This document shows positions 1-47,344 of a stretch of DNA of 49,378 nt, piece by piece. Position numbers and translations under genes: made by a program. The stretch is from an uncultured Prevotellaceae bacterium (GTDB taxonomy: Bacteria; Bacteroidota; Bacteroidia; Bacteroidales; Bacteroidaceae): contig ONSR01000003.1 of NCBI GenBank assembly GCA_900320565.1, forward strand, positions 1-49,378. Direction: 5' to 3'. Every line of letters begins with the position of its first letter. Within the stretch, counting starts at the first letter, position 1. The notes under the pieces are model-generated. The model was not told the origin of the DNA and searched no databases. It saw only the letters and a list, made by a program, of their open reading frames with translations.

Positions 1-360
1 AAATGCTCTCGGACATAGTTTTCTTCATTTTTTTGAAGAAATGCGCTCATTTTTATTGCATGCTGATATTGAATGACTTACAAGTCGGGAAAATCGAGAC
101 CATGTTCTGAATTGCCAACTCTACATGGCAAAATCGACTGATTTATCACGTTTTTGCACACTTTTCGACGTGTTTCTTCGCCCAACGCATGCAGTCGAAA
201 TGGCCAACACACTACGTCGAGTTTCCACTTCCCCTATAGGGGATTGAAAAAGCCTCCCTGATGAAATGGCAAATCCGACGTTTTAAGGCCAGTTTTTCGG
301 CACTTTACATAGTGTGCAAAAATAGCAAAAAGAAAGTAATCTTGGCCATTTCGTGACACT
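1..360 (+). repeat. Dispersed ~400-bp intergenic element, copy A (left end outside window)
   Basis: No gene is seen here. Positions 14-315 align without gaps, at a constant offset of 19299, with 19313-19614; by eye identity is about 60-75%. Landmarks are CATAGTTTT, AAATGCGCT, CTTACAA and GGCACTTT. From 112 to 288 the element falls into 22-nt units: 112-133 has TTGCCA/TGGCAA arms, 223-244 holds the perfect palindrome CCCCTATAGGGG (231-242), and 245-266 is the conserved unit containing CCTCCCTG. The right end (AATAGCAAAAAGAAAG then GTGACACT) matches copy D near 42209-42240. It sits just downstream of the recX stop codon. Confidence 0.75.
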
Positions 361-375
361 TTGAGAAGCAGAGTA

Positions 376-858
376 TCACAAATCCAAGAGCGAATCGACG
401 GCACTGATGGCGAGTTCTGTCTCGAATCCTCGCGAGAGAAGATGACGGACGAGTTTGGCTTTGCGAAGGTACTTATCCTTGTCTTTCAGAGTACGGTCCT
501 TGGCGCGAAGCACATCATTCAATGCCTCCAGATAGTCTTCCTCGTCGATTGTCTCCATTCCCTCCTCAATTTCTTCGTCGCCAAGACGAAGGTGGCGGAG
601 CATTTGCCTTATCTTGATGCGTCCCCAATGGTTGTAGCAGAACTTGTCGTGGCAGTAGGCACGGGCAAAGCGACTGTTGTCGATGTACTTCTCCTTCACG
701 AGATAGTCCATGATATCATATGCATCCTGGGTCGAAACATTCCAAAGAGAGAGTTTCTCCATTATTTGAGACGTGCAATGTTCGCTGCCGCTACAAAGGG
801 CCGTAGCCTTGCTCAGCGCCACTTCTTTCGGCATCAGTCCTGAATCTTTCTTGCCCAT
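376..858 (-). CDS. recX: Regulatory protein RecX
   Basis: A 160-residue RecX-family protein, known elsewhere to bind RecA filaments and modulate recombination. The three-helix repeat pattern is visible: an N-terminal ALSKATALCSGSEHC segment, a middle stretch with VKEKYIDNSRFARAYCHDKF, and a C-terminal LVRHLLSRGFETELAISAV. Length is normal. It follows prmC on the same strand. The start at 858 overlaps prmC by 25 nt. A second ATG at 834 overlaps the prmC stop in a TGATG arrangement and would give 152 residues; translational coupling makes that start at least as likely. Confidence 0.9.
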   Translation of the reverse strand: MGKKDSGLMPKEVALSKATALCSGSEHCTSQIMEKLSLWNVSTQDAYDIMDYLVKEKYIDNSRFARAYCHDKFCYNHWGRIKIRQMLRHLRLGDEEIEEGMETIDEEDYLEALNDVLRAKDRTLKDKDKYLRKAKLVRHLLSRGFETELAISAVDSLLDL

Positions 859-1721
859 ACAAATCGATTATTATCGTATTCATCCCTCACAACCTGTACC
901 TTCTCGTAACCCTTTTGCTGGAGGAGTTCCGCAACTTGCTCGGCATAAGCCCTGTTCACCTCAAAGAAGATTTGTCCTTCATCACAGAGATGTTCCCGTC
1001 CGAACTCGCTGATTGCCCTGTAGAAGAGCAACGGGTCGTCGTCTGGAACAAAGAGCGCGAGGCGAGGTTCGTGGTCGAGAACGTTTGCATCCATCGCCGA
1101 GGCTTCGCTTTCGCAGATGTAAGGAGGGTTGCTGACAATGCTGTAGAATGAAGAATGAAGAATGAAGAATGAAGAATTTGCTGCCGCCATCATGTCACGC
1201 GATGATACTTCATTCTTAATTCTTAATTCTTCATTCCCAAGGATATCTCCCTTCACAAACTCCACTTCAGCGCTAAGTCGCTCGGCATTCTGCTTTGCAA
1301 TGGCAAGAGCTTCGTCCGAAACATCAAGAGCCGTCACTTTGTAACCGGCCAAAGCCAATGAGATAGCGATGCAGCCGCTGCCTGTCCCAACGTCGAGCAC
1401 CGTACTTCCAGGAGCCACATTCTGCTCCACGAGATGCGCCAATTGCTGGGTCTCGGGCCTGGGAATAAGTACGCCAGGTCCAACGAGAAACTCGTGTCCA
1501 CAGAACTCCTCACAGCCCAAAACATACTGCACAGGCTCGCCTTTCACGACTCTATCAACAATTATTTGCAACTCTGCTTGCTTTTCTGCCGATAATGTCG
1601 TATCTTTGCCGAGGAGAATATCTGTGCGAGAGAGGCCAAAACGCTGGCTGAGGATAAGCTCATAAAGTGCTCTCCCCTCGCCCGAGCCGTATCTCTGTTG
1701 TAACTTCTGCAGTGCATTCAT
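834..1721 (-). CDS. prmC: Release factor glutamine methyltransferase PrmC with in-frame repeat insertion
   Basis: PrmC (HemK) methylates the Gln of the GGQ motif in class 1 release factors using S-adenosylmethionine. Visible are the N-terminal helical domain, the substrate-side motif GVLIPRPET, the SAM-binding VLDVGTGSGCIAISLA and the catalytic VSNPPYI. About 30 extra residues (roughly 162-192) lie between GDIL and VSNPPY. They are encoded by a heptamer hairpin (1146-1236) that keeps the frame and introduces no stop. The start is placed at MNALQKL because the longer frame (1736) runs through the -7 promoter box at 1726-1733. Transcribed with recX. Confidence 0.93.
   Translation of the reverse strand: MNALQKLQQRYGSGEGRALYELILSQRFGLSRTDILLGKDTTLSAEKQAELQIIVDRVVKGEPVQYVLGCEEFCGHEFLVGPGVLIPRPETQQLAHLVEQNVAPGSTVLDVGTGSGCIAISLALAGYKVTALDVSDEALAIAKQNAERLSAEVEFVKGDILGNEELRIKNEVSSRDMMAAANSSFFILHSSFYSIVSNPPYICESEASAMDANVLDHEPRLALFVPDDDPLLFYRAISEFGREHLCDEGQIFFEVNRAYAEQVAELLQQKGYEKVQVVRDEYDNNRFVWARKIQD
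1146..1236. repeat. Inverted pair of four-heptamer blocks inside prmC
   Basis: Left arm 1146-1173 is four GAATGAA units. Right arm 1209-1236 is TTCATTC, TTAATTC, TTAATTC, TTCATTC. The 28-nt arms are inverted repeats matching at 26 of 28 positions around a 35-nt loop. The block is read in frame in prmC, where its peptide contains ELRIKN; the same six residues come from the purL insertion at 43776-43851. Confidence 0.9.
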
Positions 1722-1725
1722 GCTG

Positions 1726-1733
1726 CAAAGATA
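1726..1733 (-). promoter_or_regulatory. Promoter -7 box for prmC-recX
   Basis: The minus strand reads TATCTTTG, a match to the Bacteroidota -7 box TAnnTTTG. No TTTG lies 19 bp upstream. The box ends only 4 nt before the prmC ATG at 1721, so the transcript would have almost no leader. Confidence 0.65.
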
Positions 1734-1740
1734 CAAAAAG

Positions 1741-1806
1741 ATTAGGGATTAAAGATTAGAGATTAAAGATTTTTACATTTCAATGTTCAATATTCAATGT
1801 TCAATG
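1741..1806. repeat. Two four-heptamer blocks between prmC and ribD
   Basis: Block 1 (1741-1768) is four ATTAAAG-like heptamers. Block 2 (1779-1806) is TTCAATG, TTCAATA, TTCAATG, TTCAATG. Positions 1779-1810 are identical to 38501-38532 in front of trpD. Block 2 overlaps the chosen ribD start codon. Confidence 0.85.
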
Positions 1807-2771
1807 ATATAAATTACATGCGGCGGTGCCTGCAATTGGCACGATGTGGAGAGGCTGGAGCGCCGCCCAATCCGATGGTGGGAGCCGTGATTGTCTGCGA
1901 CAGTCGCATCATTGGCGAAGGCTATCATCGCCGTTGTGGCGGACCGCATGCCGAGGTGAACGCCATAAACAGCGTAAAGGAAAGAGACCTCCTAAGCCGC
2001 AGCACCATCTATGTCAGTCTGGAACCTTGTGCTCATTACGGCAAGACGCCACCTTGTGCCGACCTCATCATCGAGACAGGCATCAGGCGGGTTGTCATTG
2101 GTTGCACAGACCCATTTGCGAAGGTCAACGGCTTGGGAATCAAGAAACTGCGGGAGGCTGGATGCGAAGTGCAGGTTGGAGTACTCGAACAGGAATGCCG
2201 CGAACTGAACCGCCGCTTCTTTACCTTCCACGAAAAGCACAGACCTTGGATTACTCTAAAGTGGGCACAAAGTTCGGATGGAATTATGGGGGGAGACAAT
2301 AGAATCACCTTCTCTAATGCTTTGACCCAGACTCTTGTACATCGCTTAAGGGCACGAAGCGGAGCCATCCTCGTCGGCACGAATACGGCTCTACAGGACA
2401 ATCCGACGCTCACCACAAGACTCTGGCCTGGGCCCAACCCTCTTCGCCTCACCATCGACCGCAACGGCATACTTCCGCCCACTCTTCATCTAAAGGACAA
2501 CAGCACTCCGACGGTCATCTACAGCCACGAAAGCATCGAGGAGATACTGGCGGACCTCTACGCTCGAGGCATACAAAGCCTCCTCGTGGAAGGTGGAGCG
2601 AAACTGCTTCAAAGCTTTATCGACAAAGGCCTTTGGGACGAAGCACGCATCGAAACTGCACCCCTGTGCCTCGGCCAAGGCACCAAAGCGCCCACACTCA
2701 AAGACGAACAACTGAAAAGCAAGCAAAACATCGACGGACACATCATCCAACATTATTGCCACAAACCCTGA
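1797..2771 (+). CDS. ribD: Bifunctional riboflavin biosynthesis deaminase/reductase RibD
   Basis: Catalyses two steps of riboflavin synthesis: deamination of the pyrimidine product of GTP cyclohydrolase II, then NADPH-dependent reduction of its ribosyl side chain. The N-terminal deaminase domain shows PNPMVGAVIV, the zinc/catalytic HAEVNAI and PCAHYGKTPPC. The C-terminal reductase domain (from about residue 145) has ITLKWAQSSDG and SLLVEGGAKLLQSF. The 324-residue length is normal. The chosen ATG lies inside the heptamer repeat; a second ATG at 1818 (MRRCLQLA) is possible, but family members usually have several residues before that point. Confidence 0.94.
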   Translation: MFNDINYMRRCLQLARCGEAGAPPNPMVGAVIVCDSRIIGEGYHRRCGGPHAEVNAINSVKERDLLSRSTIYVSLEPCAHYGKTPPCADLIIETGIRRVVIGCTDPFAKVNGLGIKKLREAGCEVQVGVLEQECRELNRRFFTFHEKHRPWITLKWAQSSDGIMGGDNRITFSNALTQTLVHRLRARSGAILVGTNTALQDNPTLTTRLWPGPNPLRLTIDRNGILPPTLHLKDNSTPTVIYSHESIEEILADLYARGIQSLLVEGGAKLLQSFIDKGLWDEARIETAPLCLGQGTKAPTLKDEQLKSKQNIDGHIIQHYCHKP

Positions 2772-2884
2772 AAAACATGGAATAAAGTGTTACACAAGGT
2801 GCAATATTCCCTAATTAAACTTAAAACAAGCACAGAAATGAGCAATAATCGTAAACAATAAACGGTTAAATCGCAAATTATTTG

Positions 2885-2892
2885 TATCTTTG
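2885..2892 (+). promoter_or_regulatory. Promoter -7 box upstream of the lipoprotein-porG-uppS run
   Basis: TATCTTTG fits TAnnTTTG and is followed by a short leader to the ATG at 2933. It rules out the TTG at 2882 as a start codon. It may serve the whole same-strand run beginning with the lipoprotein gene. Confidence 0.65.
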
Positions 2893-2932
2893 CACCTTGA
2901 AATCACACATACACGCTATGCGCGCTAAACAT

Positions 2933-4294
2933 ATGACAAGTAAGACAACACTGACTCGTTGGTTCCTGTTGCTATTGGCAGTGCCCCTCTTGGCATCTTC
3001 ATGCTCAAAAGACAGCGACATCGTGACTGCCAACGATTACTGCTACATAAAGTCAGTGACGCTGGGAACCGTCAAGCGTAAGACTGCTACAATCAACACC
3101 ACTTTCTCCGGCAGCGGCTATGCTATGACCATCAACCTGCGCGACAATACCATCGAGAACAGAGACTCCCTACCCTTTGGCAGCCAACTCTCAAGAGTTA
3201 CGGCCAACATTATATTCGATGGATTAATGCTCACTTATCGCACCAAAGGTTCCGATGCAGAATGGACTGCATACAACTCCGCCGATAGTCTTGACCTCAC
3301 GGCTCCATTGGAGCTCAAGCTAACAAGCAACGACAACAATAGTAGCCGCATCTACACCTTCAAGGTCAATGTGCACAAACAAGAAGGCGACTCACTGTAT
3401 TGGAACATGTGCGAAAGCGAAGTACCACAACTTGCAGACATGACTGACATGAAAGCCTTTATCTTCGGAGGAAAGCTGATGGTTCTGGGACAGAAGGCAG
3501 CTGGTATCGTTCTTGCAGAACGCTCATCAACAGAAGCCCAAGGCACTTGGGAAGAAACCCCTATAACAGACCTGCCCACCACAGCAGACCTGCAGACACT
3601 TCGCGAACAAGGGGAAGCACTTTACCTCAGCACAAGCAATGGCGAGATACTCTCCTCAACAGATGCCAAGACATGGCAACAAGTAGGCATCACACACTCC
3701 GCCACCCTAACACTCGTCGAAAAGACTCAGGACTTCTTCTATGCTATCTCAGAAGGCAAGATGCTACGCTCTGCCGACGCAATAACCTGGGAAGAAGAGA
3801 GCCTCGACACAAAGCCGGACTCCCTTCCCAATACAAACATCAGAGCGCTGACCATAGAACAGGCAAACGGAAACCTGAGAACCATAATGGTGGGGCATAA
3901 CGACAGTCACATCCATGCCGTCGTATGGAACAAGATGTGGAACGAGAGCGAAGAGGAAGAAGACGCTCAGTGGATGTTCTTTAACTGGACTTCCGATAAC
4001 GCAATTCCTTGCCCACGCCTCAAACATTTCAACCTGTTAGCCTACGACGGCAAGTGCATCGCCTTTGGTGGCGCATCTGACGACGAAACACACCAAGCTC
4101 TTGACGCCATGTATATCAGTCAAGACTATGGCATTACATGGCGACCCAGCAAAGAACACCACATGCCCGTTGAACTAAAGGGCATCGAAAGCTGCATAAC
4201 AAGCACCGTTGACAACAATTATTTCATCTGGATTATCACTAACGCACAAGTATGGCGCGGAAGATTGAACAGACTTGGATTCGTACAGCAATAA
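2933..4294 (+). CDS. Predicted lipoprotein, DUF6242-like
   Basis: A 453-residue secreted lipoprotein of unknown function. The N-terminus has a positively charged start, a hydrophobic LLLLAVPLLASSC run ending in a lipobox cysteine, then an acidic SKDSD stretch. The rest looks like beta-rich repeats with WEEESLD, TWQQVG and ITWRPS segments, suggestive of a propeller-like fold. It resembles DUF6242 proteins of Bacteroidales; that assignment is from memory of the family. Its 3' end overlaps porG by 43 nt, implying coupled expression. An in-frame ATG at 2918 is an alternative start. Confidence 0.7.
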   Translation: MTSKTTLTRWFLLLLAVPLLASSCSKDSDIVTANDYCYIKSVTLGTVKRKTATINTTFSGSGYAMTINLRDNTIENRDSLPFGSQLSRVTANIIFDGLMLTYRTKGSDAEWTAYNSADSLDLTAPLELKLTSNDNNSSRIYTFKVNVHKQEGDSLYWNMCESEVPQLADMTDMKAFIFGGKLMVLGQKAAGIVLAERSSTEAQGTWEETPITDLPTTADLQTLREQGEALYLSTSNGEILSSTDAKTWQQVGITHSATLTLVEKTQDFFYAISEGKMLRSADAITWEEESLDTKPDSLPNTNIRALTIEQANGNLRTIMVGHNDSHIHAVVWNKMWNESEEEEDAQWMFFNWTSDNAIPCPRLKHFNLLAYDGKCIAFGGASDDETHQALDAMYISQDYGITWRPSKEHHMPVELKGIESCITSTVDNNYFIWIITNAQVWRGRLNRLGFVQQ

Positions 4295-4986
4295 CCATCT
4301 TCTGTCTCCTCTTTGTCTTCACCACGAAGGCAGAAGAAGAGATTGAGTACAAGATGGATATGGGCGTAGGACTTGGCGGTTGCTTCTACATGGGCGACGC
4401 CAACGGCGTCCCGTTTGCCAACCTTAGTGCAATGGGAGCCATCACAGCTCGCCGTATCCTCAATGCCCGCATGGCAGTCAAGGCAAACCTCGCCTTCGGG
4501 CATATACACGGCACAACCGACGGATTCATCCCGGTCGACGCATATAGCGAAACCCCCGAAGGCGGCACGCGTACCCAAGTACAGTTCTCCAGAAATGTCA
4601 TGGATCTAGGCGTACAATTCGAACTGAACTTCTGGGGCTTCGGAACAGGAGTCGGCTACAAAGGCAATAGTCGCATCACACCATACATCCTTGCAGGAGC
4701 AGGCGTTACAATAGGAATGGGAGGAGGAGCGAAAGCATGTGGTGGAATGAACATCCCTGTAGGCATAGGAGTTAAATACAAAGTCAAGCCCCGCATTAAC
4801 CTCGGCTTCGAGTGGACTATGCGCTTCAGCACAACCGACAAGCTCGATGCCACACCAGAAGGAACGCAACTAAACGACCCATATGGTGTAAAGAGCGGAT
4901 TCCTCAAGAACAAAGACACCTACAGTTTCGCCATGTTCTTCATCACATACGACATGTTCCCGAAACTCCGCAAATGCAATAATTAG
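4252..4986 (+). CDS. porG: Type IX secretion outer-membrane protein PorG (DUF6089)
   Basis: A 244-residue outer-membrane beta-barrel of the PorG family. PorG is a type IX secretion component associated with the PorK/PorN ring in Porphyromonas gingivalis. A signal peptide (TAITIFCLLFVFTTKA) is followed by family features: EYKMDMGVGLGG, FYMGDANG, a central LGVQFELNFWGFG, ITPYILAGAGVT, IPVGIGVKYKV and INLGFEWTMRF. The gene order porG-uppS-bamA-skp matches P. gingivalis as I recall it and supports the call. The start overlaps the preceding lipoprotein gene by 43 nt. Confidence 0.85.
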   Translation: MARKIEQTWIRTAITIFCLLFVFTTKAEEEIEYKMDMGVGLGGCFYMGDANGVPFANLSAMGAITARRILNARMAVKANLAFGHIHGTTDGFIPVDAYSETPEGGTRTQVQFSRNVMDLGVQFELNFWGFGTGVGYKGNSRITPYILAGAGVTIGMGGGAKACGGMNIPVGIGVKYKVKPRINLGFEWTMRFSTTDKLDATPEGTQLNDPYGVKSGFLKNKDTYSFAMFFITYDMFPKLRKCNN

Positions 4987-5005
4987 TAACTAAGCATCAA
5001 GAAAT

Positions 5006-5761
5006 ATGGATTTCGAAACAAAGCTCGACGCAAGTCAACTCGACAGAAACAACATACCACAATCCATAGCCATCATCATGGACGGCAATGGTCGCTGGGC
5101 ACAGGAGAAAGGATTACCCCGTTCTAGTGGACACCTACAAGGAGTCGATAACGTAACTCGCATCACTTCTGAATGTGCAAGGCTTGGAGTTAAGTATCTG
5201 ACCATGTATACCTTCTCCACAGAAAACTGGAATCGTCCGGAAGCAGAAGTAAAAATGCTGATGGGCCTTGTAGTTGATAAACTCGAGGATGAGATATTCA
5301 TGAAGAACGATATCCGTTTCCGTTACATAGGAGACCTGGAGAGACTGCCTGCACCTGCACGCCAAAGAATCCTGGATTGCATGGAGAACACAAAGAACAA
5401 CAAACGCATGACAGCTGTCACTGCCCTTAACTATAGCAGCCGATGGGAACTGACTAAAGCAATGCAAGACGCTGTTCGTGAAGCACAGGCAGGACACATT
5501 AAACCCGAGGATATCAACGAGGAATATATATCGAAACACCTTGAGACAAACTTCATGCCAGACCCCGACCTGCTCATAAGGACAGGTGGAGAATTACGCA
5601 TCAGCAACTACCTGCTTTGGCAATGCGCCTATAGCGAGTTCTATTTCTGCGACACCTTCTGGCCAGACTTCCGCGAAGAAGACCTACACAAAGCCATAGC
5701 TGCATATCAACAAAGGCAAAGACGATTCGGCATGACCGGAGAACAAGTGGCAAAAGGCTGA
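5006..5761 (+). CDS. uppS: Undecaprenyl diphosphate synthase (cis-prenyltransferase)
   Basis: Condenses isopentenyl diphosphate onto farnesyl diphosphate to make the C55 lipid carrier for peptidoglycan and surface glycans. Motifs seen: [12 protein letters not shown] with the catalytic Asp, the [11 protein letters not shown] segment, [19 protein letters not shown], and YSEFYF..FWPDF near the C-terminus. The 251-residue length is normal. It sits 19 nt after porG and 29 nt before bamA. Confidence 0.97.
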
Positions 5762-5790
5762 ACACAAAGAAACTACGGCAAATAACAAAA

Positions 5791-8415: not shown

Positions 8416-8456
8416 TTGACCTATACATTATATTATATATTAAAGAACGTACCATT

Positions 8457-8966: not shown

Positions 8967-9008
8967 TTTTAGAATAAATAATTAACTCACAAACTTATAA
9001 ACTTAAAG

Positions 9009-9509: not shown

Positions 9510-9528
9510 CCCTTTTAACTTCAAGCCT

Positions 9529-10092: not shown

Positions 10093-10102
10093 GGAGGCTG
10101 GC

Positions 10103-10957: not shown

Positions 10958-11062
10958 TAAAATATGGTACTTTACCGAAATTCGCATCACTCCACATCAA
11001 GGCTTTCTGCCACCAGCACATGACAGAAAGACCATCAATAGGCAAAAAAAAGCACAGATATC

Positions 11063-12307: not shown

Positions 12308-12309
12308 AG

Positions 12310-12675
12310 ATTTTTCTGTAACGCACGCTTTCTGGCGGCGTTTTTTTGTTTTTCCGACACTTTTCTACCCCAAACGCGAGAAAATGGCTCAAATCGAGTC
12401 ACCACTGATAATCAACAAGTTACAAAGAGGCATCTAAGAGGACGATGCAAATAACATACAACAATAACGTTGTTAGTTGGCAAAATCAGCATATTTTGAC
12501 ACAAAATTCGACGTGTCGAGTCGGTCAACGTAACGTAGGGGAATTGCAAACTCGGCATAGGGGATTTGCAAACTTAACGTAGGGCGTTGAGAAATCCTCC
12601 ACGCCGAATCACAAAAGATGGCGTTTTGCGTAAAACTTTTTGTCAGTATTTTTTCAGGAACTTTGCAAGCCACGC
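12310..12675 (+). repeat. Dispersed intergenic element, copy B
   Basis: No gene is seen. It shares with copies A and C the AAGTTACAAAGAGG stretch near 12418, GTTGGCAAAA (12477-12486), CGACGTGTCGAG, and the conserved CCTCC unit (12588-12609). Tandem 22-nt units run 12522-12543, 12544-12565, 12566-12587 and 12588-12609; two begin TTGCAAAC. The right end reaches the stop codon of the minus-strand gene at 12676. Confidence 0.7.
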
Positions 12676-19051: not shown

Positions 19052-19239
19052 CGAAAAAAAGTTTGTTGTTTACTATTCTTCGCCTGTTTTTATAATATAT
19101 AAACGTAAACACAGTCCGATTTATTGCATTGGCGAACATAAACTATTGAGGTCTCACGAAAAAATGAACGACAATCGAAGGACAATGACAACACAGATAA
19201 ATACTTTAAGAACGACCCGACGCTCACTTTTACACAATG

Positions 19240-19655
19240 TCAATAATTTGCCCGTTTTGCTTACATCTTGATTTTGAGACAACCGCCACAAACCGTCGAA
19301 AACGGTCTCAGCCATAGTTTTAGTCATTTTTTCAAAGAAATGCGCTTAAATCGAATCTATATTGAGTATCAAGAAGTTACAAAGAGAAGAATTAAAGGCA
19401 AAACACCAAATTGACAACTCCGGATAGCAAAACTGGCCATTTTTCTATAGTTTTTGATGAATTCCGACGTAATTTTTCACCCAACGAATGCAGCCGGAAT
19501 TGCAAACGCCCCGTAGGGGATTCGCAATTCCCCTATAGGGCATTGAGCAACCCTCCCTGCCGAGTTGGCCAATTCGACGTAATCCATGCCCTTTTCAGGC
19601 ACTTTGCAGAATATCATTCTGTCAGAGAAATTGAGAAACCACTTACATTATGACA
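19240..19655 (+). repeat. Dispersed intergenic element, copy C
   Basis: The 790-nt gap between porQ and tonB has no convincing gene. Positions 19313-19614 align without gaps to copy A. Upstream parts (TTTGCTTACA near 19258, ACCGTCGAAAACGGT at 19292-19306) match copy D near 41841-41880. Units of 22 nt run 19500-19521 (CCCCGTAGGGG core), 19522-19543 (CCCTATAGGG core) and 19544-19565. An earlier unit, 19411-19432, corresponds to 112-133. Outer limits are tentative. Confidence 0.75.
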
Positions 19656-23506: not shown

Positions 23507-23571
23507 GGATTAAAGATTAAAGATTAAAGATTAAGAATATTACAGTTTTCTTAACTCTTAACTCTTAATTC
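23507..23571. repeat. Two four-heptamer blocks between exbB and the next gene
   Basis: Block 1 (23507-23534) is GGATTAA plus three AGATTAA. After a 9-nt spacer, block 2 (23544-23571) is a degenerate AGTTTTC then TTAACTC, TTAACTC, TTAATTC. The blocks are loosely complementary. They begin 6 nt after the exbB stop codon. Confidence 0.8.
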
Positions 23572-23594
23572 TAAATTAATTAACAGGTAGAACT

Positions 23595-25392: not shown

Positions 25393-25455
25393 GTTAGTTC
25401 ATAGTTCATAGTTAAGAGTTCATAGTTTATCTCTTCACTCATCACTAATCTCTAA
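25393..25455. repeat. Heptamer blocks between tRNA genes
   Basis: Five CATAGTT-like heptamers (25393-25427) are followed directly by four TCACTAA-like heptamers (25428-25455). Confidence 0.75.
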
Positions 25456-25462
25456 TCAAAAT

Positions 25463-27035: not shown

Positions 27036-27101
27036 CCAGTACTCACACGAGAAAACTCCAGTACTCTCCGGAGAAAACTCCAGTACTCACACGAGAGTAC
27101 T
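27036..27101 (+). repeat. Three tandem 22-bp units
   Basis: Units at 27036-27057, 27058-27079 and 27080-27101 all begin CCAGTACTC. The middle unit contains the palindrome TCTCCGGAGA (27065-27074); the outer two have ACACGAG there. Period and dyad placement match the arrays elsewhere in the window, but the flanking octamer differs. The rest of 26928-27168 shows no gene. Confidence 0.75.
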
Positions 27102-38475: not shown

Positions 38476-38528
38476 CCCCCTTTAGGGGGAACAAAAATTG
38501 TTCAATGTTCAATATTCAATGTTCAATG
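38468..38528. repeat. C-rich hairpin and four-heptamer block between trpG and trpD
   Basis: CCCCCTAA (38468-38475) pairs with TTAGGGGG (38482-38489) around six bases; the trpG stop codon is inside the first arm. TTCAATG, TTCAATA, TTCAATG, TTCAATG follow at 38501-38528. Positions 38501-38532 equal 1779-1810 exactly. Confidence 0.85.
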
Positions 38529-38530
38529 AT

Positions 38531-39526: not shown

Positions 39527-39539
39527 GGAAATCCTCGTT

Positions 39540-39571
39540 ATAACGAGATAACGTCATAACGTGATAACGAC
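39540..39571. repeat. Four-octamer block between trpD and trpC
   Basis: ATAACGAG, ATAACGTC, ATAACGTG, ATAACGAC in tandem, ending 10 nt before the trpC ATG. Confidence 0.85.
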
Positions 39572-39581
39572 AATTGAAGCA

Positions 39582-40373
39582 ATGAAAGACATCTTAGAAG
39601 AAATCGTGGCGCACAAGCGCATCGAAGTGGCCGAGCAAAAGGAGCAGACGCCAGCAAGGAAACTCTATTCCGAAGTTGAGCGAATGATGGCAGAAGGCGT
39701 ATCGAAGCGCAGTTTGAGTCAGGCTTTGACAGTGAACGACTTTGGCATCATCGCCGAATTCAAGCGCAAGAGTCCGTCGAAGGGATGGATTAAAGAGGAT
39801 GGCAAGCCTGAGATAATTCCGCTTTCTTACGAGCAAAACGGTGCCGCAGCCCTCAGCATCCTGACCGACGAGATGTATTTTGGCGGCTCGCTCGACTTCA
39901 TAAGAAAGGCCCGACCGCTCGTCTCGATTCCCATCCTCCGCAAGGACTTCATCATAGACGAATACCAGCTCTTCCAAGCGCGACACGTCGGAGCCGACGC
40001 CGTTCTGCTCATCGCCGCCGACCTCAGCAAGCAGGAAGTCCGCTCACTTACTTCCATCGCCCATGAGTTGGCGCTCGAAGTCCTGCTGGAACTGCATTCA
40101 GAGCACGAGTTGGACTACGCCGACAGCGACGTCGATGCACTTGGCGTGAACAATCGCAACCTGGGAACTTTCGTCACGGACGTGCAGAACTCGTTCCGCT
40201 TGGCGAGCCAACTTCCTCAAGACAAAGTGCTTGTCAGCGAGAGCGGCATCAGCAATCCGGACACCATCCGCTTGCTGCGAGAGGCAGGTTACAGAGGTTT
40301 CCTCATCGGAGAGACTTTCATGAAGACCGACAACCCAGGGGAAACATTAAAGAACTTCATTTCGCGATTATGA
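39582..40373 (+). CDS. trpC: Indole-3-glycerol phosphate synthase
   Basis: Closes the indole ring. Seen are EFKRKSPSKGWI, ILTDEMYFGGSLDFI, ILRKDFIIDEYQ, ALGVNNRNLGTF and VSESGISNPDTI. The start is ATG 39582 (MKDILEEIVAHKRIEV), giving 263 residues; GTG 39561 would begin inside the octamer block. TrpC is separate from TrpF here, not fused. Confidence 0.97.
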   Translation: MKDILEEIVAHKRIEVAEQKEQTPARKLYSEVERMMAEGVSKRSLSQALTVNDFGIIAEFKRKSPSKGWIKEDGKPEIIPLSYEQNGAAALSILTDEMYFGGSLDFIRKARPLVSIPILRKDFIIDEYQLFQARHVGADAVLLIAADLSKQEVRSLTSIAHELALEVLLELHSEHELDYADSDVDALGVNNRNLGTFVTDVQNSFRLASQLPQDKVLVSESGISNPDTIRLLREAGYRGFLIGETFMKTDNPGETLKNFISRL

Positions 40374-40990
40374 TGATAAAGGTTTGTGGAATGCGAGATG
40401 CCGAGAATATTCGGAAAGTAGAACGTTTGGGCATCGACATGATGGGCTTCATTTGTTGGGAGCGCTCGCCGCGATATGTGAGCGAAGTGCCTGCCTATCT
40501 ACCTCAATGCGAACGTATTGGCGTCTTCGTTAACCAGTCTCTTGACGAGATTCAGAAGCAGATGGAGGCCTTCGAGTTCAGTTACATTCAGCTTCATGGC
40601 AGCGAAAGTGCTGAGTTCTGCCAAGCAGTTCGAGAAAAGACGGGCTGCAAAGTCATCAAAGCTATCTGCATAAGTTCGGAAGCGGACCTCGCTCTTGCTG
40701 GTCAATACGAAGGCTTCGTCGATCTGCTTCTCTTTGATACAAAGTGCACAAACTTTGGCGGAAGCGGCAAACAATTTAACTGGGACATCCTCCGCGACTA
40801 CCGAAACGCCCTACCCTTCCTGCTTTCAGGAGGCATCGGACCTGAAGATATTGAGCGACTCAACACGTTTCATCACCCCAAATGCCTCGGCTTCGACATC
40901 AATTCGCGCTTCGAGATCGAGCCAGGCATCAAGGATACAGAAAAGATAAAAACTTTCATAAAAGGCATTCAGACTTATGAACAGAATTAA
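40370..40990 (+). CDS. trpF: Phosphoribosylanthranilate isomerase
   Basis: An Amadori rearrangement enzyme, TIM barrel, 206 residues. Seen are IKVCGMRDAENI with the catalytic Cys, FICWERSPRYV, IQLHGSESAEFC, LLLFDTKCTNFGGSGKQFNW with the catalytic Asp, and FLLSGGIGPEDI. It overlaps the trpC stop (ATGATG) and overlaps trpA by 14 nt. Confidence 0.96.
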   Translation: MMIKVCGMRDAENIRKVERLGIDMMGFICWERSPRYVSEVPAYLPQCERIGVFVNQSLDEIQKQMEAFEFSYIQLHGSESAEFCQAVREKTGCKVIKAICISSEADLALAGQYEGFVDLLLFDTKCTNFGGSGKQFNWDILRDYRNALPFLLSGGIGPEDIERLNTFHHPKCLGFDINSRFEIEPGIKDTEKIKTFIKGIQTYEQN

Positions 40991-41753
40991 CAAGATATTT
41001 CAAGAGAAGAGCAAAGGCTTGCTCTCGCTCTATTTTTGTGCTGGTCATCCGACCCTCGAAAGCACCTGCGACATCATTAAGACGCTGGAACAGAAGGGCA
41101 TAGACTTCATCGAAGTGGGCATTCCCTTCAGTGATCCGATGGCCGACGGCCCAGTTATTCAGGACGCAGCCACTAAGGCGTTGCGAAACGGAATGAGCCT
41201 CCAGAAGCTCTTTTCGCAGTTGGAACCACTCAGGAAACAAGGCGTCCAGCTGCCCCTCATACTGATGGGCTACATGAATCCCATTTATCACATGGGTTAC
41301 GAGGCTTTCTTCCGACGCTGCAAGGAAGTAGAAATCGACGGCGTCATCATTCCGGACCTGCCCTTCAAGGACTACATGGACGAGGTCAAACCCATTGCCG
41401 ATAAGTATGATATCAGGGTAATCATGCTCATCACGCCTGAGACGAGCGACGAGAGGATACGCTTCATCGACGAGAACACAGATGGTTTCATCTATATGGT
41501 CAGTTCCGCGGCCACAACCGGAGCACAGAAAGAGTTCGACGAGGCCAAGCAGGCTTACTTCTCGCGAATCGACAAGATGGGCCTCAAGCACCCTCGCATG
41601 ATCGGTTTCGGCATTAGTAACCGACAGACTTTGCAGAGCGCTCAAGCCAACGCAGCTGGAGCCATTATCGGCAGCAAGTTCGTAACTCTGCTCGACAAAC
41701 ACGGCGCTCCAGAGCCTGCGATTGAGGAACTCTTCAAGGCACTCGAAGAGTAA
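40977..41753 (+). CDS. trpA: Tryptophan synthase alpha chain
   Basis: Cleaves indole-3-glycerol phosphate and passes indole to TrpB. The catalytic Glu is in FIEVGIPFSDPMADGPVIQ and the catalytic Asp in GVIIPDLPFKDY. Phosphate-binding parts are IGFGISNRQT and AGAIIGSKFV. 258 residues, normal. Last gene of the operon, so trpB and trpA stand at opposite ends. Confidence 0.97.
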   Translation: MNRINKIFQEKSKGLLSLYFCAGHPTLESTCDIIKTLEQKGIDFIEVGIPFSDPMADGPVIQDAATKALRNGMSLQKLFSQLEPLRKQGVQLPLILMGYMNPIYHMGYEAFFRRCKEVEIDGVIIPDLPFKDYMDEVKPIADKYDIRVIMLITPETSDERIRFIDENTDGFIYMVSSAATTGAQKEFDEAKQAYFSRIDKMGLKHPRMIGFGISNRQTLQSAQANAAGAIIGSKFVTLLDKHGAPEPAIEELFKALEE

Positions 41754-41786
41754 TTCCCAATTCGAAATACACAATTCACAATTGGG
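41752..41786. repeat. Heptamer block at the trpA stop
   Basis: AATTCCC, AATTCGA, AATACAC, AATTCAC, AATTGGG begin in the trpA stop codon itself. The ends (CCCAATT/AATTGGG) are inverted. Confidence 0.65.
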
Positions 41787-41814
41787 GCAGTTCTCAATAA
41801 ATCTGCCTCAACTT

Positions 41815-42239
41815 GACAGAATGTAAGCAAACTGGCATAATTTGCTTACACTCTGCATTTCCAAAACCGTCCAAAAACGGCATCGAAATTCAGGGCCTGT
41901 ACCTAGGTACACAGTTTCTAGAATTTTGTTGGTTTTTGTAACTACTTGGCTTTGTTGAAGTTACATTTTAGGAGTTCTGGAGAAGACAGTCAAAACGCTC
42001 GATTTTGCATGTAAAACGGGCCATTTTACCTTATTTTGGGGGTCATCAAGACACGTTAAATTACCAAAATCGACGTGTCGAGTTGGAAAACTTCACGTGT
42101 GAAGTTTGTCAACTACTCTAGAGAAGTCGTACAACTTGACCTTTCGAGCCAATAAAGTCTCCATAATTTACGCAAATTCACTCAGTTTTGTATTCAAAAC
42201 CGAAATAGCAAAAAGAAAGAAAAATGGGCAGATTGGTGA
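41815..42239 (+). repeat. Dispersed intergenic element, copy D
   Basis: No gene is seen. It is palindrome-rich: a 10-bp inverted repeat TGTAAGCAAA/TTTGCTTACA (41822-41850), TGTACCTAGGTACA (41898-41911), TTCTAGAA (41916-41923). The 22-nt-spaced dyads are CGACGTGTCG, CTTCAC-GT-GTGAAG (42091-42104) and CTCTAGAG (42116-42123). Its right end (AATAGCAAAAAGAAAG..GTGACT) matches copy A and touches the chromate-transporter stop codon. Confidence 0.7.
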
Positions 42240-42821
42240 CTAAAGTCCCAGTATGATGCCGGCAAATCCGCAAAGCAGAATGATGAGGATTGGGCCGAGA
42301 CGATAGACTTTCTGGGCAATAAAAGCGAAGCAGAAAAGGAAGATGCTGAGACAGAAACGCCATGGATTTTCACTCATCGAACTGAAGTTCTCGGCGTTCA
42401 TCAAGAGCAAAGCGGCTGACAACAACAGGCCGACAACGGCTGGACGCAAGGCGCTGAAGACATTCTCGACTGAGGGATGATTCCTGTATTTCATGAGAAA
42501 TTTGCTGATGAGCAACATCAGGACGAAGCTCGGAAGCACCACCGCAAACGTGGCAATAAAGCTTCCAAATATTCCCCATGCAGGTGAATAGCCCGCGTTG
42601 ACGAGTGCCGTATAGCCGACATACGTGGCAGAGTTGATGCCGATAGGTCCCGGAGTGCTTTGGCTGACAGCAACAATGTCCGTGAACTGCCCCATAGTCA
42701 TCCAATGATAATGTCCCACGACCTCGCCCTGAATCATAGAAATCATGGCATAACCCCCGCCAAAACCGAAAAGACCGATAAGGAAAAAGGTCCAGAAAAG
42801 CTGTAATAGGAGCGTTATCAT
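42240..42821 (-). CDS. Chromate transporter half-protein (ChrA family), second subunit
   Basis: A 193-residue membrane protein equal to one half of long ChrA. It begins LFWTFFLIGLFGFGGGYAMI and has VAVSQSTPGPIGINSATYVG, the conserved motifs of the family, followed by further helices. The family exports chromate or related oxyanions; natural substrates are often unknown. It lies 6 nt after its partner, so the two are co-expressed as a heterodimer. Confidence 0.9.
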   Translation of the reverse strand: MITLLLQLFWTFFLIGLFGFGGGYAMISMIQGEVVGHYHWMTMGQFTDIVAVSQSTPGPIGINSATYVGYTALVNAGYSPAWGIFGSFIATFAVVLPSFVLMLLISKFLMKYRNHPSVENVFSALRPAVVGLLLSAALLLMNAENFSSMSENPWRFCLSIFLFCFAFIAQKVYRLGPILIILLCGFAGIILGL

Positions 42822-42827
42822 TGTTAT

Positions 42828-43367
42828 TTATGAGTTAAAATCGTCTTTCAAATACTTACCGTAAACATAGCCCGAAACGCCTGCTGCCAAGACGACGAAG
42901 ATGGGACTTACGCCCAAAATCCATATCAGGAAAGCCGCCACGATTGGAATCCACACGTTGTAACGATTGATTTTAGCGCTCTTTGCCATGCGAAAGACAG
43001 GCAAAGCGATGAGAGCCACTACGGCAGGACGGATGCCGTGAAAGAAGTGCTCGACATAGACATTCTCCCTAAATTGCTGGAAGACAAGGGCTATCAGCAA
43101 GATACAAAGGAACGAAGGCAGACAGGTGCCGAGAGCACTTACGAAAGCTCCCTTGTTGCCCAGTCGCTTGTTGCCGATGAAGATGCTGATGTTCACGGCA
43201 AAAATGCCCGGACACGACTGCGCAACGGCAATCAGGTCAAGCAACTCGTCGTGCCCCACCCAATGTTTCTCGTCCACAACCTTCTGCTCGATGAGCGGAA
43301 TCATGGCATAGCCGCCACCAATCGTGAAGAGTCCTATCTGGAAGAATGTCTTGAAGAGTTCGAACAT
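42828..43367 (-). CDS. Chromate transporter half-protein (ChrA family), first subunit
   Basis: A 179-residue homologue with the same start (TFFQIGLFTIGGGYAMIPLI) and VAQSCPGIFAVNISIFIG. Paired short ChrA proteins are a known arrangement, so this is not a broken long gene. Its ATG overlaps the purL stop by one base (TAATG), suggesting translation coupled to purL. Confidence 0.9.
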   Translation of the reverse strand: MFELFKTFFQIGLFTIGGGYAMIPLIEQKVVDEKHWVGHDELLDLIAVAQSCPGIFAVNISIFIGNKRLGNKGAFVSALGTCLPSFLCILLIALVFQQFRENVYVEHFFHGIRPAVVALIALPVFRMAKSAKINRYNVWIPIVAAFLIWILGVSPIFVVLAAGVSGYVYGKYLKDDFNS

Positions 43368-46300
43368 TATCCTAACTTTGTCTCAACCCATTTCCTTGCA
43401 TTCACGAACGCTTCTATCCAAGGTGTCACCTCATCCTGGCGTCCTGCAGGATAATATCCGCATTGCCAAGGGAAGAAAGCACGCTCGAGGTGAGGCATCA
43501 TGGCCAAGTGTCTGCCGTCTGCCGAAGCGATACCTGCGGCCGAGAAGTCGCTGCCGTTCGGGTTGGCGGGATAGCCGTCGTAGCTGTACTTGAGCACGAT
43601 ATTGTAGTCATCCTCCTTGCCTGGCAGGCTGAACTTACCTTCGCCATGAGCAACCCAAATGCCCAACCTGCTGCCGCTCAGGCTGCCCATCAACACGCTG
43701 CGATTGGTCTGGACAGTAAGCCCCACGAAGCCCGACTCGAATTTGTGGCTGTCGTTGTGGAGCATCCTTGCAGAATTCTTAATTCTTAATTCATAATTCA
43801 TAATTGTTTCTGAGCTGCCTTCATTATGAATTGTGAATTGTGAATTATGAATTAACCCCAGTTCCACCATCAATTGACACCCGTTGCAGACGCCAAGGGA
43901 GAGTGTGTCAGGACGGCTGTAGAAACGGTCCAGTGCCTCTTTTGCCTTGGGATTGTAGAGGAAAGCACCTGCCCAACCCTTTGCCGAACCAAGCACATCA
44001 CTGTTGGAGAAGCCGCCACAGAAGACGATGAAGTTGATGTCGCTGAGCGTTTCCCTGCCCGAAATGAGGTCGGTCATCATGACATCTTTGACGTCGAAGC
44101 CTGCCAAGTAGAGCATGTAGGCCATTTCCCTCTCGCCATTTGTGCCTTTCTCGCGGATGATAGCTGCTTTTACGCCACTCTTTTCCCTACGGTCCGGGTT
44201 CAAACCATACTGGCTGAGTTTGCCTGTGAAGCTTGGCAGGAAGTTCCATTCGAGTGGCTGCTTGCGATAGTTTTCATAGCGTTCTTTCGCCTTACCATTG
44301 AAGCTTTGCTTGCGGTCGAGCAGATAACTGCTTGCATACCAAACATCACGAAGATAATCGATGCCAAACTGATATTGTGCTCCAGCCTTTTCCATGAGGA
44401 TGTGACGCTCTTCGCAAGGACGGCCGATGTTAACATAACCGACTCCCGCATCCTCAAGGAACTTCTTGACCTCCGTGCGATTCTTGTCGGCAACCTGTAT
44501 GACGATGCCCGGGTTCTCTGCAAAAAGGAGTTTCACTAGGTCGTCGCACTTCATCTTGTCGAGGTTTATCTCAAGTCCGCCTTCTGTATTTGCGAAGCAC
44601 ATTTCCAGCAGACAAGTGATGAGACCGCCTGCCGAGATGTCGTGACCGGCAAGAATAAGCCCCTTCTTTATCAGGTCCTGAACGGCATTGAAGGCATCGC
44701 GGAAGTACTCCGGATCACGTACCGTTGGCACATCTGAGCCGACCTTCCCCATGCTTTGGGCAAATGCAGAACCACCCAAACGCAGTTCATCGAACGAGAA
44801 GTCTATATGATATAATGTAGAGGGACATTTCTGCAAAACGGGCGAAACGACCTTCTTGATGTCGCTTACCTGACCGCCACTCGAAACGATAACTGTTCCT
44901 GGGCTGATTATCTTAGTTCCATCAGGATATTTCTGTGTCATAGAGAGGCTGTCCTTGCCCGTCGGAACATTGATTTGAAGAGCGCAGCAGAAGTCGCTCA
45001 ACGCTTCAACTGCCTGATACAGACGTGCATCCTCGCCTTCCTGAGCACGACAAGGCCACATCCAATTCGCGCTAAGACTGACGCTATCCAATCCTTCTTC
45101 GAGCGGAGCCCAAAGGATATTTGTCAGAGATTCTGCAACAGAAAGGACACTTCCTGCAGCCGGATTGGCAAGAGCGGCTTGTGGTGCGTGGCCAAGAGCC
45201 GTGGCAATACCTTTCTCGCCACGATAGTCGAGGGCAACCACGCCACAGTCCGAGAGCGGCAACTGCAGTTCGCCCTGACATTGTTGGCGTGCCACCTTGC
45301 CCGTCACAGAACGGTCAACCTTGTTGGTCAGCCAGTCCTTACAAGCCACAGCTTCAAGTTGAAGCACTCGAGCAACCTTTCCGCTGAGGTCCTTTTGGTC
45401 GTAAGAAACATTCTCGTAAGCACGTTCCACCGTCTTATCTCGCATGACAGTCTTAGGACTATGACCAAACATCTGAGCCACATCGAGGTCGAAAGGTCGC
45501 TTCCCATCCCCTTGTTGGAAGGCGAAATGGGCATCTCCTGTCGTCTCTCCGACTACATAAAGCGGAGCGCGCTCCCTTTCTGCAATCTTGCGGACATGCT
45601 CGATGTGCTTCTCGTCGATGAGGAGTCCCATGCGTTCTTGGCTTTCGTTGGCGATGATTTCCTTAGCCGAAAGTGTTGGGTCGCCAATAGGAAGTTTCGT
45701 CATATCAATGAGTCCGCCACACTCTTCTACAAGCTCGGAGAGGCAGTTGACGTGTCCTGCGCTTCCATGATCATGGATGCTGACAACGGGATTCACTTCC
45801 TCTTCGCAAAGCGCACGCACCAGATTGTTGGCACGCTTCTGCATCTCTGGGTTAGCACGCTGTACTGCGTTAAGCTCGATACCACTCGAATAGCGACCAG
45901 TCTCCACGCTGGAAACGCTGCCGCCACCAAGTCCGATGCGATAGTTATCACCGCCCACGACCACAATCTTATTGCCTTTCTGAGGTTTTTTCTTCAGGCA
46001 ATCGCGCTTCGTGCCATAACCTACGCCTCCAGCCAGCATGATGACTTTGTCGTAGGCATATTGTTCCTGACCTTCCTGATGCTCGAAAGTGAGGACAGAT
46101 CCGCAGATAAGGGGCTGTCCGAACTTGTTTCCGAAGTCGGAAGCACCATTCGAAGCCTTGATGAGAATCTGCTCAGGAGTCTGGTAGAGCCACTTCCTGA
46201 CAGGCAAGATCTGCTCCCATTCGCGCTCTTCCTCCGTTCTGGGATAGCTCGTCATATACACCGCAGTACCTGCGATGGGCCATGAACCTACGCCACCACC

Positions 46301-47119
46301 CATACGGTCGCGAATCTCGCCACCAGTTCCGGTTGAAGCTCCATTGAAGGGCTCGACCGTAGTCGGGAAGTTGTGCGTCTCGGCTTTGAGGCTGATAACG
46401 CTTTCTATGTCACGCACTTCGAAGTAATCACTCGTGCTGTGATCCTTCGGAGCGAACTGCTCGACAACCGGTCCTTCAGCAAACGCCACATTATCCTTAT
46501 AGGCAGAAATGATGTGATGGGGGTTCTCGTGGGTCGTTTTCTTTATCATCTGGAAGAGAGACGACTCTTTTTCTTCGCCATCGATGATAAAGGTTCCGCC
46601 AAATATCTTGTGTCGGCAATGCTCACTATTGATTTGAGCGAAGCCAAAGACCTCGCTGTCAGTTAGTTTCCTGCCGAGTTGACCTTCCACTTGATGCAGG
46701 TATTCTATCTCTTCGGGGGACAGCGCGAGGCCTTCCTGCTCGTTGTATTCCTCCAGATTGTCAATGCTGAGGATGGGCTCGGGCTTCTTGTTGATGGTGA
46801 AGATGTCCTGATTCAAGCCGTGATAAAGCCTTTGAAGCATGGGGTCGTAGTCAGCATTCTCGTCCTTTACGGGGTAGTATTCCTCTATTCTCGAAATGCC
46901 TTCGATGGCCATGTTCTGCGTGATTTCCACCGCGTTAGTGCTCCACGGCGTAATCATTTCGCGGCGAGGTCCAATGAAATAACCTTGCAAGTTTTCTTCC
47001 TTTTCAGTATTCGCTTCACCATACAGCCAGCAGAGTTTCTCGACTTCGGCTTTCGTGAGAGCCTTTTTGCTTTCGGTTGCGATAATACTTAGCTGGGGAG
47101 TCTTGAAAAAAGTAATCAT
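43367..47119 (-). CDS. purL: Phosphoribosylformylglycinamidine synthase, single-chain type, with in-frame repeat insertion
   Basis: A 1250-residue enzyme for the fourth step of purine synthesis. The FGAM synthase domains have DSEVFGFAQINSEHCRHK, ETHNFPTTVEPFNGASTGTGG, HDHGSAGHVNCLSELVEECGG and GHDISAGGLITCLLEM. The C-terminal glutaminase has the catalytic Cys in LGVCNGCQLMVE and His/Glu in AMMPHLERAFFPWQ (HPER is more usual). About 26 residues near 1089-1114 come from a heptamer hairpin placed between VELGLI and MLHNDSHKF. A -7 box TAAATTTG lies at 47152-47145. Confidence 0.97.
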   Translation of the reverse strand: MITFFKTPQLSIIATESKKALTKAEVEKLCWLYGEANTEKEENLQGYFIGPRREMITPWSTNAVEITQNMAIEGISRIEEYYPVKDENADYDPMLQRLYHGLNQDIFTINKKPEPILSIDNLEEYNEQEGLALSPEEIEYLHQVEGQLGRKLTDSEVFGFAQINSEHCRHKIFGGTFIIDGEEKESSLFQMIKKTTHENPHHIISAYKDNVAFAEGPVVEQFAPKDHSTSDYFEVRDIESVISLKAETHNFPTTVEPFNGASTGTGGEIRDRMGGGVGSWPIAGTAVYMTSYPRTEEEREWEQILPVRKWLYQTPEQILIKASNGASDFGNKFGQPLICGSVLTFEHQEGQEQYAYDKVIMLAGGVGYGTKRDCLKKKPQKGNKIVVVGGDNYRIGLGGGSVSSVETGRYSSGIELNAVQRANPEMQKRANNLVRALCEEEVNPVVSIHDHGSAGHVNCLSELVEECGGLIDMTKLPIGDPTLSAKEIIANESQERMGLLIDEKHIEHVRKIAERERAPLYVVGETTGDAHFAFQQGDGKRPFDLDVAQMFGHSPKTVMRDKTVERAYENVSYDQKDLSGKVARVLQLEAVACKDWLTNKVDRSVTGKVARQQCQGELQLPLSDCGVVALDYRGEKGIATALGHAPQAALANPAAGSVLSVAESLTNILWAPLEEGLDSVSLSANWMWPCRAQEGEDARLYQAVEALSDFCCALQINVPTGKDSLSMTQKYPDGTKIISPGTVIVSSGGQVSDIKKVVSPVLQKCPSTLYHIDFSFDELRLGGSAFAQSMGKVGSDVPTVRDPEYFRDAFNAVQDLIKKGLILAGHDISAGGLITCLLEMCFANTEGGLEINLDKMKCDDLVKLLFAENPGIVIQVADKNRTEVKKFLEDAGVGYVNIGRPCEERHILMEKAGAQYQFGIDYLRDVWYASSYLLDRKQSFNGKAKERYENYRKQPLEWNFLPSFTGKLSQYGLNPDRREKSGVKAAIIREKGTNGEREMAYMLYLAGFDVKDVMMTDLISGRETLSDINFIVFCGGFSNSDVLGSAKGWAGAFLYNPKAKEALDRFYSRPDTLSLGVCNGCQLMVELGLIHNSQFTIHNEGSSETIMNYELRIKNSARMLHNDSHKFESGFVGLTVQTNRSVLMGSLSGSRLGIWVAHGEGKFSLPGKEDDYNIVLKYSYDGYPANPNGSDFSAAGIASADGRHLAMMPHLERAFFPWQCGYYPAGRQDEVTPWIEAFVNARKWVETKLG
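43776..43851. repeat. Inverted pair of four-heptamer blocks inside purL
   Basis: Left arm 43776-43803: TTCTTAA twice, TTCATAA twice. Right arm 43824-43851: TTATGAA, TTGTGAA, TTGTGAA, TTATGAA. The arms are inverted repeats matching at 24 of 28 positions around a 20-nt loop. Read in frame; the peptide includes ELRIKN, as in prmC. Confidence 0.9.
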
Positions 47120-47144
47120 TTTGAGGTCGTTTTTAATTTGCGTG

Positions 47145-47152
47145 CAAATTTA
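47145..47152 (-). promoter_or_regulatory. Promoter -7 box for purL
   Basis: The minus strand reads TAAATTTG, 25 nt before the purL ATG. Confidence 0.55.
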
Positions 47153-47256
47153 CAACAAAATTTCGTGTTTACCAATTTTCTACTTTGATATTTTCAAAAG
47201 AAAACATCAAAGCAACAAATGACTCTTGGTTAGTTTGAAAACCAGGCACACTGACT

Positions 47257-47344
47257 TTGCAAACTTAACACGTTAAAACGATCAACTTAACACGTTAAAA
47301 TGATTAACTTAACACGTTAAAATTACAATTTAACCATGTTATGT
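47257..47344 (+). repeat. Tandem 22-bp dyad array
   Basis: Units at 47257, 47279, 47301 and 47323. The first three carry CTTAACACGTTAAAA with TTAAC/GTTAA arms; the fourth is degenerate (TTTAACCATGTTATG). The first unit begins TTGCAAACTTAAC, identical to the start of the unit at 12566 in copy B. Lies between purL and the regulator gene. Confidence 0.85.

What the first reader, a model, noticed from the sequence alone, without database searches (positions are those of the whole stretch)
112..47344. Family of 22-bp tandem dyad arrays whose palindromes change but symmetry is often kept
At five loci (201-266, 12522-12609, 19500-19565, 42083-42127, 47257-47344) units repeat every 22 nt. The left part is often TTGCAAAC-like and a dyad is centred near unit position 14-15. 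The cores differ: CCCCTATAGGGG, CCCCGTAGGGG, CTTCACGTGTGAAG, CTCTAGAG, TTAACACGTTAA. Changes on both arms together suggest selection on symmetry, though some units (e.g. in copy B) have weak dyads. A 22-bp step is about two helical turns, so dimeric proteins could line up on one face. All are in the same orientation. I cannot name a known family; P. gingivalis BrickBuilt MITEs, which I recall carrying ~23-bp tandem repeats, are the nearest analogue.
Basis: partly seen in the sequence, partly recalled or inferred. Interest (0 to 1): 0.82.

Follow-up and report, generated by a model that had tools for sequence, protein, structure and literature searches.

The report
22-bp near-palindrome arrays between genes
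A group of uncultured gut bacteria carries, in the gaps between ordinary genes, short DNA arrays that repeat every 22 bases; the letters differ from species to species while the spacing does not, as if a protein were lining up along one side of the DNA.

Summary
The 22-bp step is real and wider than the window suggested. Lag 22 is the leading tandem lag in the window, and a sixth array lies at 27036-27096. In sampled own and same-genus DNA, the midpoints of 89 of 89 lag-22 arrays lie outside predicted genes; 255 kb from 20 other families hold none. Species use different cores. Two grammars stand out: class II, AAC-N4-C-RY-G-N4-GTT plus a 4-bp spacer, found as unit pairs in 9 of 37 same-genus genomes and 0 of 24 others; and class I, CCCTATAGGG-N12. 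Of 88 class I neighbours within 70 bp, 86 are 22 bp apart and 2 are 44, though the 12-nt spacers differ by 4.2 bases on average. Best reading: an intergenic minisatellite family, partly inside a MITE-like element, kept as a helically phased protein-binding platform near gene ends. No binding protein was identified.

The parts
201..266 (+). Array A (mixed class II and class I units) in a leader-array-tail element; 110 bp beyond the stop of a RecX-domain gene on the minus strand
12522..12609 (+). Array B; chimeric units such as AACTTAAC-GT-AGGGCGTT; between convergent predicted genes; sequence to its left is shared with other own copies
19229..19499 (+). Leader of element C (shared with other own-genome copies; no conserved RNA fold); left end approximate
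19500..19565 (+). Array C; two class I-like cores 22 bp apart, in a divergent gap
19566..19625 (+). Tail of element C, as far as it matches L003; right end approximate
27036..27096 (+). Array F, not in the finding: TRF unit CCAGTACTCACACGAGAAAACT
   Evidence: dyad p 0.01
41800..42047 (+). Putative leader of element D, with hairpin GTAAGCAAA..TTTGCTTAC; inferred from that hairpin, as its sequence matched only itself among own sequences
42048..42155 (+). Array D; class II units with GT centres (AAATCGAC-GT-GTCGAGTT, AACTTCAC-GT-GTGAAGTT), between convergent tryptophan-synthase-alpha and chromate-transporter genes
47257..47334 (+). Array E; class II units with AC centres (AACTTAAC-AC-GTTAAAAC), about 29 bp from the stop of a winged-helix gene and 112 bp from the start of an FGAR-amidotransferase (purL-like) gene

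Best explanation
These are members of an intergenic minisatellite family, seen here throughout one genus of uncultured Bacteroidales and its near relatives (a few other MAGs carry similar class I-like arrays). The unit is 22 bp: an 18-bp near-palindrome (class II AAC-N4-C-RY-G-N4-GTT; class I CCCTATAGGG with asymmetric flanks) plus a 4-bp spacer. Shown by sequence: arrays lie between predicted genes, favour gene ends, keep a 22-bp step while their letters diverge, and in five orthologous comparisons differ by whole units. Inferred: each unit is a site for a dimeric DNA-binding protein, and a step of two helical turns stacks dimers on one face of the duplex near gene ends. Part of the family sits inside a leader-array-tail element that probably spread like a MITE.
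For: Spacing: class I neighbours within 70 bp 86 at 22 and 2 at 44, spacers differing at 4.15 of 12 bases; class II 68 at 22, 4 at 44, 1 at 66 and one each at 5, 37 and 64. Midpoint inside a predicted gene: 0 of 101 arrays with 88% of the DNA called coding; 0 of 89. Class I never in a divergent gap (0 of 22; p 0.003 by gap bases, 0.009 by gap count), median 44.5 bp from a stop codon. Tandem gaps: 38 of 53 arrays nearer the stop. Centre: GT 24 and AC 21 of 75 class II candidates. Unit direction ignores gene direction: class I 8 along, 6 against. Two-unit class II pattern, up to one mismatch, 16-163 times in 9 of 37 genus genomes, 0 in the other 28 and in 24 of other families; reversed control 0 except 2 in G017. 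Of 12 gaps of 10 bases or more that touch an array in orthologous alignments, 5 are 22, 22, 22, 44 and 110.
Against: No binding protein was found; only two recombinase families were sought. Very different cores in one genome are awkward for one protein. RNA hairpins of the arrays are strong. Rigid spacing could follow from unit-wise duplication followed by substitutions alone. Many loci were brought in by a pattern or alignment that contains the 22 step, so arrays with another step would be under-sampled. The other 7 of the 12 gaps are 12, 16, 16, 18, 21, 28 and 73 bases; they and nine smaller gaps fall where the two spacers carry different arrays or the array meets a non-alignable edge. Multiples of 22 also occur outside arrays (22, 44, 44, 66, 66). 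An earlier, weaker gene caller put 3 of 101 arrays inside genes. The genomes are drafts, in which arrays can collapse.
Confidence: 0.42

Rival explanations
1. Selfish or neutral minisatellite with a MITE-like carrier, as in P. gingivalis BrickBuilt: arrays grow by slippage or transposition and have no function; the palindromes are tolerated in spacers.
For: Leader and tail shared by several own-genome copies; whole-unit length changes; found in one lineage; intergenic placement is expected of any such element. BrickBuilt has leader, repeats and tail too (PMC4596501).
Against: Neutral drift should leave 1-2 bp indels between units; none among 88 class I neighbours (with the sampling caveat). 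A different 22-bp array occupies the same orthologous spacer in G000 and G034 (L156:14378 v L104).
Confidence: 0.28
2. 3'-end mRNA hairpins or terminators, in the manner of REP/BIME: transcribed arrays fold into long stems that stop polymerase or protect the message.
For: Location near stop codons; four class I arrays fold at z -4.6 to -8.7; mean z of all arrays -4.3 in convergent and -3.4 in tandem gaps.
Against: On the sense strand of tandem-gap arrays G.U mismatches (158) are not commoner than A.C (181); class I direction ignores gene direction (8 v 6); by eye most class I array ends lack a T run; E folds weakly (z -1.7); 16 of the 89 arrays that could be placed lie in divergent gaps; hairpins do not need a strict 22-nt step.
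Confidence: 0.18
3. A lineage-specific enzyme makes 22-bp tandem duplications at palindromes, so the ruler is mutational and any palindrome can found an array.
For: Unrelated cores share the step; at one spacer G061 has three units where G000 has about one (L078:2401 v L161).
Against: One birth-like case, and loss in G000 explains it as well; no enzyme found: Y1 transposase 0 in G000, serine recombinase 0 in G000; other enzymes were not sought.
Confidence: 0.12

Closest known systems
BrickBuilt minisatellite/MITE of Porphyromonas gingivalis (PMC4596501: abstract, sections 5 and 8, part 1 of section 7 and search passages seen)
   Same: Order Bacteroidales (recalled); intergenic; tandem repeats with leader and tail; some copies lack leader or tail; long predicted stem-loops.
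   Different: Step 22, not 23; many unrelated cores across the genus; class I arrays mostly without leader or tail; 113 exact core pairs in G000 against 19 elements in strain ATCC 33277. Sequences were not compared.
REP/BIME/REPIN palindromes with RAYT transposase (PMC3733652: search passages seen; PMC3116915: listing only; BIME recalled)
   Same: Short extragenic palindromes in many copies, some clustered.
   Different: Exact tandem 22-bp grid; no Y1 (RAYT-type) match in G000.
22-nt tandem direct repeats of P. gingivalis W83 (mentioned in PMC4596501, section 7)
   Same: Same period.
   Different: Sequence and place are not given there; not compared.

Membership tests
BrickBuilt MITE | 23-nt tandem repeat unit | tested here: not met
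   89 arrays at lag 22 against 1 at lag 23 in own and genus stretches; neighbour distance 22
BrickBuilt MITE | Leader and tail around the repeats | tested here: inconclusive
   Present for A, B (left side), C and further own copies; E flanks matched only themselves; class I hits match the array part only
BrickBuilt MITE | IS5-like terminal inverted repeats GAGACC..GGTCTC | tested here: inconclusive
   A GGTCTC lies inside the leader, not at its end; ends and target duplications were not resolved
BrickBuilt MITE | Intergenic location | tested here: met
   0 of 101 array midpoints in predicted genes; 3 of 101 with the weaker caller
REP/REPIN | Associated RAYT (Y1) transposase | tested here: not met
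   PF01797: 0 in G000 (89% complete); 12 of 37 genus genomes, G034 among them, have a match, several weak
REP/REPIN | GTAG or CGTC tag beside the palindrome | not tested
   no search made
Serine-recombinase crossover sites (near-palindrome with GT centre; recalled) | Cognate serine recombinase in the genome | tested here: not met
   PF00239: 0 in G000; 34 of 37 genus genomes without a match
Known structured RNA | Rfam match at gathering score | tested here: not met
   Only four tRNAs in the window; the leader alignment gave 0 consensus pairs

The most novel reading that the evidence does not exclude
A genus-wide bacterial satellite system: a DNA-binding protein that stacks every 22 bp holds the spacing constant while its recognised half-sites turn over from species to species, so that array and protein co-evolve much as satellites and their binding proteins do in eukaryotes, and arrays at the same gene end are replaced by arrays of another core type.
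Probability: 0.2. Interest if true: 0.85.

Novelty: new variant of a known kind. Interest (0 to 1): 0.62.

Why it matters
Repeat families are normally recognised by shared sequence. Here the spacing is the conserved character and the sequence the variable one, in 61 places of the 448 kb of this genome that were read (stretches partly chosen beside known copies). If a protein holds that spacing, these arrays are a readable record of how a bacterial DNA-binding protein and its sites change together, and they may organise or insulate gene ends in a lineage known mostly from MAGs. If no protein does, the rigid step becomes a mutational puzzle.

Tried and rejected
Serine recombinase: the GT/AC centre and chimeric half-sites (AACTTAAC-GT-AGGGCGTT) suggested crossover sites; rejected because G000 and 34 of 37 genus genomes lack the family. 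REP/RAYT as driver: rejected for G000. Whole-array palindrome with covarying spacers: suggested by the fold of L156:925-1060; by eye most other arrays do not show it. Intrinsic terminators as the general role: T runs at few class I ends, by eye. Structured leader RNA: no consensus pairs. parS-like sites: thought of from memory because of CACGTG and set aside because the dyad centre differs; no test. Phage source: class I pattern 0 in viral contigs; class II pattern one stretch, L218, not pursued. Other lags as controls: in the genus, lags 27, 18 and 36 also give dyads (8 of 9, 6 of 12, 5 of 10); several of the intergenic ones have a 9-bp step with CTATAG or CTAGTT units, others lie in genes, so dyads are not unique to lag 22. 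The gene caller was replaced by that, which is used throughout. Papers: eight searches listed no paper that by title or abstract start describes this family; CCCCTATAGGGG is in no paper held.

Full report
What was checked. The window is the whole of contig C77 of an unnamed draft genome, G000 (2.63 Mb, 122 contigs, 89% complete). Lag 22 is its strongest tandem lag. B, D and E are clear; A and C are weak by autocorrelation but on the same grid; a sixth array, F, lies at 27036-27096.

Extent. With up to two mismatches, CCYTATAGRG-N12-CCYTATAGRG occurs 187 times on the forward strand of G000, reversed control 0. The exact core pair occurs 113 times in G000, 3 times in G034 and in none of the other 59 of 61 genomes. 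Near relatives: G061 15, G063 12, G062 3, G065 3, G064 2. The public scan gave 34 stretches; 20 are from five MAGs (RUG11599 10, RGIG4467 5, Reindeer_1_mag_94 3, RGIG6885 1, RUG837 1) and 14 from others, among them Kiritimatiellaeota, SI.A6 and SI.B26 MAGs. Contig lengths indicate that G034 is Reindeer_1_mag_94. A lag-22 scan, which needs no known core, found 0 arrays in 255 kb from 20 genomes of 20 other families, 18 in 356 kb from eight congeners (three stretches chosen beside hits) and 22 in 370 kb from twenty more. Absence elsewhere is thus from small samples, apart from the two patterns searched in whole genomes.

Cores differ between species. Examples: AAGACGCGCGTCTT in G001, ATACGACCGGTCATAT in G015, CCCTCGCGAGG in G031, AACTCCCCTAGGCGAGTT in G002 and TTCCCAGCCTGGGAA in G032. 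Dyads: own 43 of 59, genus 18 of 34, against 12 of 48 and 39 of 147 at other lags.

Grammar. Class II units read AAC-N4-C-(mostly GT or AC)-G-N4-GTT, then N4. Of 75 candidate units 45 have a GT or AC centre; 8 of the 75 lie in predicted genes. The two-unit pattern, up to one mismatch, occurs in G007 (163), G000 (111), G026 (108), G035 (83), G019 (61), G011 (54), G023 (27), G034 (19) and G012 (16), and in no other of 61 genomes. In 14 arrays from the loci of a five-genome search the half left of GT is less variable than the half right of it, so the unit has a direction. Class I: in 46 arrays of at least three cores, some from other genomes, 133 of 183 cores have a CG flank on one side and a GA/GG flank on the other, 31 have GA/GG on both, 0 have CG on both (26.8 expected), 19 are unclassed; CG flanks never face each other across a spacer (0 of 137, 16.8 expected). 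One two-core array, L150:9248, breaks both rules with an altered core.

Does symmetry persist through joint changes? Not shown. Searches give some excess agreement of inner arms, one search does not, and in the own set the agreement belongs to the array rather than to the unit. What persists is a symmetric frame in class II and an inner 10-bp palindrome in class I.

Spacing. Class I neighbours within 70 bp: 86 at 22, 2 at 44; the 12-nt spacers differ by 4.15 bases on average. Class II: 68 at 22. In orthologous alignments small gaps inside arrays appear only where the two spacers carry different arrays or at non-alignable array edges (9 gaps, all read). This is the strongest single result and the reason for a DNA-level, helical reading; the loci were partly gathered by 22-step queries, which limits it.

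Place. No midpoint of 101 arrays lies in a predicted gene, though some arrays overlap predicted gene ends. Tandem gaps 53 (38 nearer the upstream stop; medians 45 bp from the stop, 136 to the start), convergent 20, divergent 16, at stretch ends 12. Per base, convergent gaps hold more arrays than divergent ones (p 0.025). Class I is in no divergent gap (0 of 22). Window neighbours are ordinary genes by Pfam: purL-like, tryptophan synthase alpha, RecX, chromate transporter, TonB, GtrA; one had no match.

RNA or DNA. Arrays fold well as RNA on both strands alike, class I very well. But G.U mismatches are not favoured on the sense strand (158 against 181 A.C) and unit direction ignores gene direction. 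I lean to DNA without excluding an RNA role at gene ends.

Turnover. Of eight spacer pairs with G061, five have equal length. At L156:14378 G000 has a class I array directly after a predicted stop codon, and G034 has a different 22-bp array at the orthologous place. At D, G061 and G065 keep the array, while G063 and G064 lack the long element but carry a short, different 22-bp array. At another spacer G063 has a CTCACGTGTGAG array where G000 has 7-bp repeats. Of 12 gaps of 10 bases or more touching arrays, five are 22, 22, 22, 44 and 110; the other seven (12, 16, 16, 18, 21, 28, 73) touch replaced arrays or array edges.

Carrier. A, C and further own copies share a leader of about 250 nt (A is cut by the contig end); several start with a GTAAGCAAAA..TTTTGCTTAC hairpin. 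The left side of B is shared with other loci, and tails such as AGTGTGCAAAAATAGCAAAAAGAAAG recur. D has a like hairpin and a like tail end, but its leader matched only itself among own sequences held. Ends and target duplications were not resolved. Class I hits mostly match the array part only.

Verdict. I file it as a new variant of free or MITE-associated intergenic minisatellites, nearest to BrickBuilt but not a member (step 22, not 23).

Noticed in passing
window 1145-1236, 1737-1806, 23508-23577, 25395-25458, 43774-43854: Paired 7-bp tandem arrays of many different heptamers in spacers; lags 14, 21, 28 and 35 are also common in the genus.
   Followed up: partly
L131:1963 and L129:2456: Intergenic arrays of a 9-bp step with CTATAG or CTAGTT units in two congeners: another fixed-step array with palindromes.
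   Followed up: no
L054, L055, L068, L085: A Kiritimatiellaeota MAG has clustered ACCCTATAGGG-type units with steps of about 22-23 bp by eye, seemingly less strict.
   Followed up: no
L056, L084, L071: MAGs SI.A6 (Bacteroides sp.) and SI.B26 (Bacteroidales) carry 22-bp CCCTATAGGG arrays, that of L071 with a 23-bp step in places.
   Followed up: no
L150:1093 and L159:2525: Two own-genome spacers carry repeated TATACCGGACA, an 11-bp direct repeat.
   Followed up: no
L218:958-997: One viral contig of 199,845 bases holds an exact two-unit class II pattern; may be chance.
   Followed up: no
L155:16328-16571 v L065 and L103: One flank of this array matches G061 at 97-98% and the other at 79%, with a non-alignable stretch beside the array, as if the array were a rearrangement point.
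   Followed up: no
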